A stretch of 64,000 nt of DNA from Allorhizobium sonneratiae (GTDB lineage: Bacteria; Pseudomonadota; Alphaproteobacteria; Rhizobiales; Rhizobiaceae), in NCBI RefSeq assembly GCF_023700755.1, contig NZ_JAMKOJ010000011.1:62001-126000 (forward strand), in the 5' to 3' direction. The notes below the pieces were generated by a model, which saw only the letters and a program-made list of their open reading frames with translations, ran no database searches and was not told where the DNA came from. Positions 2,810 through 4,164 of the stretch are shown piece by piece. A program made the translations under genes and the position numbers. How positions within the stretch are numbered: position 1 is the stretch's first letter; the number at the start of each line of letters is the position of its first letter.

Positions 2810-3204
2810 ACCAGTCGGCCGGGCAGCCGCGCTTCACCAATGCCGAAAGGCGGTGAGGTGAGGAAAGTCCGGGCTCCACGGAAACACGGTGCCGGATAAC
2901 GTCCGGCGAGGGCGACCTCAGGGACAGTGCCACAGAAATGAAACCGCTCCGGTCCGCCGGGGCAAGGGTGAAAAGGTGGGGTAAGAGCCCACCGCGGACC
3001 TGGCAACAGGGACGGCATGGTAAACCCCGCCGGGAGCAAGACCGAATAGGGATGACGCGGGCCGCGCAAGCGGTTACAGCCGGTTTTCGGGCCAGTCATC
3101 CGGGTGGGTTGCGAGAGGCGGCGCGCAAGCGCCGTCCCAGATGAATGGCTGCCACGTTCCGGGAAACCGGGGCCATACAGAACCCGGCTTATAGGCCGAC
3201 TGGT
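2810..3204 (+). ncRNA. rnpB: RNase P RNA (type A)
   Basis: The ends pair as ACCAGTCGGCC (2810-2820) with GGCCGACTGGT (3194-3204), forming P1. The universally conserved GAGGAAAGTCCGGGCTCCAC lies at about 2857-2876, and the 3' half of P4 (ACAGAA-type, then AGCAAGACCGAATAGGGA) is also present. At about 395 nucleotides it fits the alphaproteobacterial form. This is the catalytic RNA that trims 5' leaders from pre-tRNAs. It lies between the oxidase gene and the dcw promoter region. I see no clear Rho-independent terminator after it. Confidence 0.97.
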
Positions 3205-3729
3205 AATTTCCTTTCAGCATGATGCCGGATGAGGAGAGATTGACTGTCCGCGAAACCGCCCTTTGGCTGTTGCGGCATGTTTTTCTCCCCTGAGTTGCTG
3301 CTATGATGTCAAGGATCACGTCCACTCACGCCTTCGTGGCGTCAGGCCCGTCTTTTCCGTCAGCTGGTTGACAAGTCCCTGAATATATGGGGTTAAAACT
3401 GCTATACGGTGGCCTTTGTGTCGTCTATCAGCTATGCCTGATAAGGCTGATTTAATAACCATTCATTAAACTTAACAGGATATAAACGAAGCATGCCGGA
3501 AAGCGGCTGCTGAACCCGTCCCATTGACGCCCATAATGTCCCATGGTATCCCAAAGCTGCACTGCAACAGGGTCGATTGAGGCCCGAACATGCGAAGTTG
3601 AAAGGCGGTTTAACACCGCTGAAGCCGCGTTGTTTACGGCTTCCGCCTTGCATGGCGAAGTGCGGTTTTATCAGTGGACATGCGGGTATGTGATCCGCGT
3701 TCATCGGAAGGAGGCGGCGGTAAGGCGTT
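3205..3729. other. Control region between rnpB and mraZ (525 bp, no gene)
   Basis: No convincing gene is present. The AT-rich part at 3440-3490 contains three TTAA tetramers (3452, 3466, 3472) and TATAAA at 3481, so the dcw promoter may lie here, although no textbook -35/-10 pair is visible. The MraZ-box repeats follow at 3519-3553. The remaining about 175 bases form a long leader before mraZ. Confidence 0.6.
3519..3553 (-). promoter_or_regulatory. MraZ box: four TGGG(A/C) repeats at 10-bp spacing
   Basis: On the + strand TCCCA, GCCCA, TCCCA and TCCCA start at 3519, 3529, 3539 and 3549, exactly one helical turn apart. On the - strand this reads TGGGA-N5-TGGGA-N5-TGGGC-N5-TGGGA. MraZ is known from E. 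coli work to bind three TGGGN repeats separated by 5 bases in its own promoter. Placement upstream of mraZ therefore makes this the likely autoregulatory operator of the dcw operon. Confidence 0.8.
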
Positions 3730-4164
3730 ATGAACCGCTTCTTGTCCAATGCGACCAACCGGATCGATGCGAAGGGACGGGTTTCCGTGCCGGCGTCGTT
3801 TCGTGCTGTGCTTGCTGGGCGGGAAATTCAGGAGCTTTACTGCATCCAGGATTTTATCTTTCCAGCCATCAGCATCGGCGGTCCGGATCTGCTCGAGCGA
3901 TACGAGCGGCAAATGGTGTCGGCGGACCCGTTTTCGCCGGCAGCGAACGAGATGTCGCTGCTCATTCATGGTGGCGGCGTTTTCATGCGCCTCGACAGCG
4001 AGGGGCGGCTGATGGTCACGGATTTCATCCGCGACTTTACTGGCATTACCTCCGAGGTCACCTTTGTGGGGCGTTCGGATCATTTTCAGGTGTGGCGGCC
4101 CGAAGCGTTTCACGAGGCGCAGATGGCGGCAAGAAAGGGGCTGGCGCGTGTGACCGGCTCCTGA
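3730..4164 (+). CDS. mraZ: Transcriptional regulator MraZ
   Basis: The 144-residue product has the usual MraZ length. It carries two SpoVT/AbrB-like swapped-hairpin domains, seen in [16 protein letters not shown] (about 10-25) and the second-half copy [14 protein letters not shown]. MraZ is an octameric ring-forming DNA-binding protein that represses the dcw operon and genes with TGGGN repeats; such repeats lie about 180 bases upstream here. The ATG at 3730 has a GGAGG-type site at about 3708-3714. rsmH follows after 17 bases, so it is the first gene of the operon. Confidence 0.97.

What the first reader, a model, noticed from the sequence alone, without database searches (positions are those of the whole stretch)
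3519..3553. Four-repeat MraZ operator in opposite-strand reading, 180 bases before mraZ
The + strand shows (T/G)CCCA at 3519, 3529, 3539 and 3549, four units in strict 10-bp register. The published E. coli MraZ site has three TGGGN units with 5-base spacers. Here there is a fourth, near-perfect unit, and TGGG reads on the strand opposite to mraZ. The long leader (about 175 bases) between box and mraZ is also unusual and could hold a second control layer.
Basis: partly seen in the sequence, partly recalled or inferred. Interest (0 to 1): 0.6.

Follow-up and report, generated by a model that had tools for sequence, protein, structure and literature searches.

The report
MraZ operator built into dcw promoter
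The four short repeats are most likely the site through which the division-gene regulator MraZ controls its own operon; in the related bacteria sampled, the site runs opposite to the E. coli one and overlaps what looks like the promoter itself.

Summary
Observation confirmed: CCCA at 3520, 3530, 3540, 3550 (TGGG x4 on the minus strand) in exact 10-bp register, the only exact array in the 4.55-Mb genome (about 0.0004 expected). Comparison marks it as the MraZ operator: the 80 closest named relatives all keep four units, this polarity, 195-213 bases before mraZ. Blind search of 150 order genomes gave 26 arrays; 22 lie directly upstream of mraZ, all with this polarity. The composite motif is in 115 of 171 family genomes with MraZ and 0 of 28 without. 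Four units, polarity and distance are thus normal here.

The published S. meliloti start (170-nt leader) falls 8 bases past this -10. In other classes of the phylum the array mostly has mraZ's polarity (16 of 28 loci significant, none opposite). A second control layer is more likely upstream: a conserved CtrA-type motif (3456-3469). The leader is largely unconserved. No binding was tested. New variant of a known kind.

The parts
2811..3207 (+). rnpB, RNase P RNA class A; upstream neighbour
   Evidence: Rfam RF00010, 301.4 bits
3456..3469 (+). CtrA-type motif TAA-N7-TTAA
   Evidence: Exact TAA-N7-TTAA 64-67 bases before the box start in 70 of 80 named loci; with one mismatch to TTAA-N7-TTAA a hit there in 79 of 80. 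S. meliloti mraZ is listed with a CtrA motif (PMC3616915 passage; PMC4414408 passage)
3481..3486 (+). TATAAA, -10-like element of a proposed distal CtrA-dependent promoter (inferred start near 3493)
   Evidence: TAT-n-AA present in 71-73 of 73 distinct rows per column, rows chosen for having the CtrA-type motif; promoter function is inference
3520..3553 (-). MraZ operator: four TGGG units in 10-bp register
   Evidence: four exact units in 80 of 80 named loci
3524..3529 (+). -35 element TTGACG of the mraZ promoter, filling the first spacer of the operator
   Evidence: TTGAC in 80 of 80; 17 or 18 bases from TA in 42 of 60 other alpha loci; promoter function inferred
3544..3552 (+). extended -10 (TGn, 3544-3546) and -10 hexamer TATCCC (3547-3552), over the third spacer and fourth unit
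   Evidence: TGnTA in 80 of 80 and TAT in 79 of 80; mapped on S. meliloti Ak57 the published 170-nt start is 8 bases past the hexamer
3559..3560 (+). predicted transcription start, about 170 nt before mraZ
   Evidence: By position from the S. meliloti start; not measured here
3570..3585 (+). small hairpin near the 5' end of the leader RNA (4 pairs in the window, one of them G-U)
   Evidence: Five-pair model at alignment columns 50-54/63-67, i.e. 3569-3586: 82.5% of cells paired against at most 54.1% in slid controls, covariation 0.250 against at most 0.117; the outermost pair is unpaired in 39 of 64 rows, the window among them
3730..4164 (+). mraZ
   Evidence: NF001477, PF02381
4182..5207 (+). 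rsmH (mraW), next gene of the dcw cluster
   Evidence: PF01795, 315.8 bits

Best explanation
The repeats are the MraZ operator of the dcw operon, superimposed on the operon's core promoter. The -35 (TTGACG) fills the spacer between the first and second units, and the extended -10 (TGGTATCCC) fills the third spacer and covers most of the fourth unit. An MraZ ring bound along one face of the helix across the four TGGG motifs would cover both hexamers and shut out RNA polymerase: negative autoregulation of mraZ, rsmH and the genes behind them. Shown: the repeats, their conservation, their polarity, their link to mraZ, and their coincidence with promoter-like letters. Inferred: MraZ binding, repression, and the start site in this organism.
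For: A single exact array in this genome, directly before mraZ. 80 of 80 named loci (the best 80 kept of 580) keep four exact units. Composite motif in 115 of 171 family genomes with MraZ, 0 of 28 without, reversed control 0. CCCATGNTATCCCA in 61 order genomes: 22 of 40 with MraZ, 1 of 21 without; 23 of 24 places directly upstream of mraZ in one orientation, the window's included. The other invariant letters are TTGAC and TGnTA with a 17-base spacer in 80 of 80. Among 42 of 60 other alpha loci that fit the rule, 34 have spacer 17 and 8 have 18; in those 8 the best array (13-16 of 16 letters) is offset by 11 or 21 bases, so TTGAC is out of register by one, as a -35 may be and a repeat unit may not. 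The outer unit is often degenerate while TTGAC stays. Published S. meliloti start, 170 nt before mraZ, is 8 bases past this -10. MraZ represses its own operon in E. coli through MraZ boxes (as told in PMC8475190) and binds a four-repeat fragment in Burkholderia (PMC7761207).
Against: No binding, footprint or expression data for this organism. TATCCC is a poor -10: a sigma-70 consensus scan of 3200-3760 found no promoter. The S. meliloti start comes from one sentence about a figure in PMC5089854, whose authors called its role in mraZ expression speculative and placed it inside a predicted terminator; I mapped it on another strain. 56 of 171 family genomes with MraZ lack the exact composite motif, and 18 of 60 other alpha loci did not fit the promoter rule; these were not all examined for variants. 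The 80 named loci are close relatives (MraZ 73-91% identical), so their uniformity is partly shared descent. A conserved site could serve activation as well as repression.
Confidence: 0.86

Rival explanations
1. The four GGG runs with 7-base loops act as a G-quadruplex in the promoter rather than as a protein site.
For: The minus strand fits G3N7G3N7G3N7G3; a functional G-quadruplex is reported at the S. aureus mraZ promoter (PMC11796246, abstract and passages).
Against: Of 52 alpha loci with a strong array (56 scored) 24 fit the quadruplex motif and 28 do not, while the 10-bp register persists; spacer letters are constrained as promoter hexamers.
Confidence: 0.04
2. The conserved block is simply a promoter and the repeats belong to another regulator, not MraZ.
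For: No binding was shown; CenR was found at the R. sphaeroides mraZ promoter by ChIP-seq without its motif (PMC9275681 passage) and CtrA motifs are predicted at S. meliloti mraZ (PMC3616915 passage).
Against: TGGG units at 10-bp period match the E. coli box; the composite motif is absent from all 28 family genomes without a MraZ match.
Confidence: 0.06
3. The repeats are an MraZ site but the main mraZ promoter is elsewhere (for example the CtrA-linked element at 3456-3486), so MraZ acts as a roadblock only.
For: Conserved TAT-n-AA downstream of the CtrA-type motif; mraZ is among 27 agrobacterial genes of which at least one ortholog has a secondary start (PMC10469942 passage).
Against: TTGAC-17-TGnTA is invariant in the 80 named loci and recurs in other alpha families, and it fits the S. 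meliloti start. The upstream -10-like element is also well conserved in Rhizobiaceae; it was not tested beyond them.
Confidence: 0.08

Closest known systems
E. coli MraZ box (Eraso et al. 2014; paper not held; seen through citing papers and the MG1655 sequence)
   Same: TGGG direct repeats at 10-bp period just before mraZ; three exact units in MG1655
   Different: In E. coli TGGG reads on the strand of mraZ and the array ends 19 bases before the ATG; here it reads on the other strand, has four exact units, ends 176 bases upstream and spans the -35 and -10
Burkholderia cenocepacia dcw operator (PMC7761207, section 8 read)
   Same: Four repeats at 10-bp period; MraZ binds the fragment that holds them, by gel shift
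   Different: Described as downstream of the -10 and overlapping the start site; here over the -35 and -10
Mollicute MraZ site (AAAGTG[T/G] with 3-base spacers; passages of PMC8475190, and PMC5282649)
   Same: 10-bp direct-repeat register; bound by MraZ
   Different: Different unit sequence
Rhodobacter UpsM leader (PMC5089854, passages and section 8)
   Same: Alphaproteobacterial dcw operon with a long 5' leader
   Different: UpsM ends at a strong terminator and makes an sRNA; no terminator-like site found here, no Rfam match

Membership tests
MraZ operator (MraZ box) | Direct repeats of TGGG(N) with 10-bp period | tested here: met
   Four exact units
MraZ operator (MraZ box) | Located in the mraZ/dcw promoter region | tested here: met
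   210 to 177 bases before mraZ, over promoter-like hexamers
MraZ operator (MraZ box) | Occurs with an mraZ gene | tested here: met
   Composite motif in 115 of 171 family genomes with MraZ, 0 of 28 without (8 of the 28 identified as the handles missing's list)
MraZ operator (MraZ box) | Bound by MraZ | not testable with these tools
   Needs gel shift or footprint
MraZ operator (MraZ box) | Same polarity as mraZ, as in E. coli | tested here: not met
   Opposite. I found no statement that polarity defines the family, and opposite is the usual state in the alpha loci sampled
UpsM-type sRNA leader | Strong intrinsic terminator between promoter and mraZ | tested here: not met
   0 terminator-like sites in 3200-3760
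CtrA-regulated promoter | TAA-N7-TTAA motif at a conserved place upstream | tested here: met
   3456-3469; exact at the fixed place in 70 of 80 named loci
CtrA-regulated promoter | CtrA binding and CtrA-dependent transcription | not testable with these tools
   Literature mixed: PMC3616915 and PMC4414408 list mraZ with a CtrA motif; PMC10469942 names possible CtrA sites at two other genes of its cell-cycle set, not at mraZ; mraZ, dcw and SMc01857 gave no hit in the main text of PMC4433202; supplements could not be read

The most novel reading that the evidence does not exclude
Alphaproteobacteria as a class carry the MraZ operator turned round and fused with the dcw core promoter, so that the 10-bp repeat period and the 17-base promoter spacer are locked together; in Rhizobiaceae a CtrA-dependent distal promoter feeds through it, so that one MraZ ring both occludes the proximal promoter and blocks the cell-cycle-driven one, making MraZ a gate on CtrA input to the division genes. 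(Probability lowered from 0.35 to 0.30 on re-reading, where the agrobacterial start-site paper names no CtrA site at mraZ.)
Probability: 0.3. Interest if true: 0.55.

Novelty: new variant of a known kind. Interest (0 to 1): 0.42.

Why it matters
MraZ heads a widely conserved operon, and the operator is described, in what I could read, for only a few lineages. A reversed operator polarity with fusion to the promoter, recurring across the alpha families sampled, would say that the MraZ site need not face the gene one way. It gives a precise 34-bp target for binding and structural tests in Alphaproteobacteria and puts MraZ and possibly CtrA on one control region, which makes their interplay testable. 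The capped listings (searches found nothing) and the passages I opened show no description of this alpha operator; the key E. coli and mollicute papers were not held, so earlier mention cannot be excluded.

Tried and rejected
Leader as a riboswitch or sRNA: no Rfam match in 3208-3800, no terminator-like site, fold of 3560-3745 not exceptional (z -1.48, 19 of 200 shuffles as stable), poor sequence conservation.

G-quadruplex: rejected as the conserved feature.

Further MraZ targets in this genome: none with three or four exact units; weaker sites were not searched.

A second CtrA site at 3472-3486: it fits only with one mismatch, and my stricter pattern for it was ill-chosen and matched 0 of 80, so I do not claim it.

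Polarity tallies rest on the loci returned by three searches (30 each, where 40, 62 and 51 genomes matched), best matches first, and on 100 mononucleotide shuffles per locus. Nine loci (6 alpha, 3 other) had no reference point under my motif rule and were left out of the polarity call.

Exceptions: four-unit hits not beside mraZ in three order genomes (L005, L009, L012/L026), which by eye look like low-complexity or short tandem repeats; one CCCATGNTATCCCA hit (L251) had no mraZ or rsmH match in its 1.9-kb locus.

Full report
What is there. The + strand reads TCCCATTGACGCCCATAATGTCCCATGGTATCCCA at 3519-3553: four CCCA units at 3520, 3530, 3540 and 3550, i.e. four perfect TGGG on the minus strand, ending 176 bases before the mraZ ATG (3730). 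The exact four-unit pattern occurs once in the 4.55-Mb genome and its reversed control not at all; the exact three-unit pattern also occurs only here. From the window's TGGG frequency about 0.0004 four-unit arrays are expected per genome. The protein at 3730-4164 is MraZ (NF001477); rsmH, a small ORF without a Pfam match and an FtsI-type transpeptidase follow. The closest named relatives by MraZ are Agrobacterium vitis and two Allorhizobium species, 90-91%. The locus of the one same-genus genome drawn (L057) is identical to Allorhizobium undicola (L088) over 85 aligned promoter columns. So the window is Rhizobiaceae, probably Allorhizobium.

Conservation. The 80 named loci are the best 80 that the tool kept of 580, MraZ 73-91% identical; nearly all are labelled Rhizobiaceae or Rhizobiales, one is a MAG labelled Arenimonas. 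All 80 have four exact units in the same polarity, starting 195-213 bases before mraZ. A blind search for the four-unit pattern in 150 genomes of the order found 26 places in 25 genomes, reversed control 0; 22 places (22 genomes, the window's included) lie directly upstream of mraZ, every one with TGGG opposite to the gene; the other 4 (3 genomes) had no MraZ match in their locus. The half-site CCCATGNTATCCCA in 61 order genomes gave 24 places in 23 genomes, 23 directly upstream of mraZ in one orientation, one elsewhere; its reversed control hit in 1 of 61. Set, that is 22 of 40 genomes with MraZ and 1 of 21 without. In the family, TTGACNCCCANNNNNNCCCATGNTATCCCA is in 115 of 199 genomes, reversed control 0. 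Comparing handles, all 115 have MraZ (115 of 171), and none of the 28 genomes without a MraZ match has the motif; 8 of those 28 are not named and were identified as the handles missing from its list. Whether each of the 115 sites lies beside mraZ was not checked one by one, and the 56 genomes with MraZ but no exact motif were not examined individually.

What the extra letters are. Besides the units, the letters invariant in the 80 loci are the T before the first unit, TTGAC (3524-3528) and TGnTA (3544-3548), with TAT in 79: a -35 element and an extended -10, spacer 17 in 80 of 80. In 60 more alpha loci (28 from the order search, 30 from the class search, 2 from the phylum search) 42 fit the rule TTGAC, 16-19 bases, TA plus repeat letters: spacer 17 in 34 and 18 in 8, none at 16 or 19; 18 did not fit. 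In the 8 with spacer 18 the best array (13-16 of 16 letters) is offset by 11 or 21 bases from TTGAC instead of a multiple of ten, and in many loci the outer unit is degenerate while TTGAC remains. That separates two constraints on the same DNA: repeats for MraZ, hexamers for polymerase. In one search, 38 of 57 loci (of 62; 5 had no reference motif) had TTGAC in register with at least 12 of 16 unit letters, against 0 in 200 shuffled sets; 6 loci had no TTGAC at all. An independent check: PMC5089854 (section 8 read) reports a 170-nt mraZ 5' UTR in S. meliloti; in S. meliloti Ak57 (a record filed as plasmid pSymB) the box is also at -210, and -170 falls 8 bases after the -10 hexamer. Against this: the authors call that start's role speculative and place it in a predicted terminator, and a plain sigma-70 scan found no promoter at 3200-3760, since TATCCC is a weak -10.

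Polarity across the phylum. With one scoring rule (best three units on either strand, 100 shuffles), of 62 alpha loci (window included) 51 are significantly opposite to mraZ, 2 opposite but not significant, 2 same but not significant, 1 tied, 6 without a reference point. Of 28 loci from other classes of the phylum 16 are significantly on mraZ's strand, 5 same but not significant, 2 tied with strong arrays on both strands, 2 tied and weak, 3 without a reference point; none is significantly opposite. E. coli MG1655 has three exact units on mraZ's strand. So opposite polarity looks like a class-level state. Units (3 of 4 letters or better) among the 51 alphas: 3 in 7, 4 in 21, 5 in 17, 6 in 6 (the outer ones may include chance matches). 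Four units are ordinary, and a four-repeat MraZ site is published for Burkholderia.

How it most likely works. MraZ is told to be an autorepressor acting through MraZ boxes in E. coli (PMC8475190 passage; the original paper is not held). It is described as an octameric toroid (PMC7761207 passage). Four motifs about one turn apart lie on one face of the helix, so a ring bound there would cover -35 to -10 and exclude polymerase. In Burkholderia, and per the same paper in E. coli, the box lies downstream of the -10. Binding and repression here are inferred.

The leader and a second layer. The 170-nt leader is not conserved in sequence (window and 22 of the 80 loci aligned) apart from a short hairpin near its start and letters close to the ATG; it has no Rfam match, no terminator-like site and no exceptional fold. 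The hairpin model (3569-3586) was counted on 69 rows, 64 distinct: the window, L057 and 67 of the 80 loci, 13 near-duplicates dropped by eye. 82.5% of cells pair against at most 54.1% for slid controls, and covariation is 0.250 against at most 0.117; but 52 of 500 shuffles match its number of doubly changed pairs, and the outermost pair fails in 39 rows, the window among them. Upstream of the box a block at 3456-3486 is conserved: TAA-N7-TTAA, CTTAAC and TAT-n-AA. The first resembles the S. meliloti CtrA consensus given in PMC3616915 (TAA-N7-TTAAC), and that paper and PMC4414408 list mraZ among genes with CtrA motifs (passages). Against: PMC10469942 names CtrA sites at two other genes of its cell-cycle set, not at mraZ, and the S. 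meliloti CtrA paper's main text does not name mraZ. A distal CtrA-dependent promoter starting near 3493 is plausible; mraZ is among 27 agrobacterial genes of which at least one ortholog has a secondary start (PMC10469942 passage). In 6 of the 42 alpha promoters TTAA lies exactly seven bases before TTGAC, against 0-2 at any other offset, suggesting that CtrA and MraZ sites can meet on one promoter.

Verdict. Observation right, regulator probably right, peculiarity claims mostly wrong: this looks like the standard alphaproteobacterial MraZ operator. What I have not found in print is its fusion with the core promoter and the class-wide polarity. The MraZ structures found (1n0e, 9qlg, 9qlr, 9sx6) could not be tied to a paper, so I do not know whether any holds DNA.

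Noticed in passing
window 3456-3487: CtrA-type motif followed by a conserved -10-like TATAAA, a candidate distal promoter of the dcw operon.
   Followed up: partly
window 3570-3585: Short hairpin with covariation right after the predicted mraZ start, in an otherwise largely unconserved leader.
   Followed up: partly
L033, L038, L040, L041, L043, L045 (order loci): TTAA exactly seven bases before the TTGAC of the MraZ promoter, so a CtrA-like site overlaps the -35.
   Followed up: no
L223 and L224 upstream of mraZ: Two non-alpha loci carry strong TGGG arrays on both strands, perhaps one for a divergent gene.
   Followed up: no
28 of 199 family genomes: No MraZ match in 28 Rhizobiaceae genomes, some small (1-2 Mb) and some full-sized (3-5.5 Mb); all 28 lack the composite operator motif too.
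   Followed up: partly
L109: A MAG labelled Arenimonas sp. carries a Rhizobiaceae-type mraZ (82% identical) and operator, probably a mislabelled or mixed bin.
   Followed up: no
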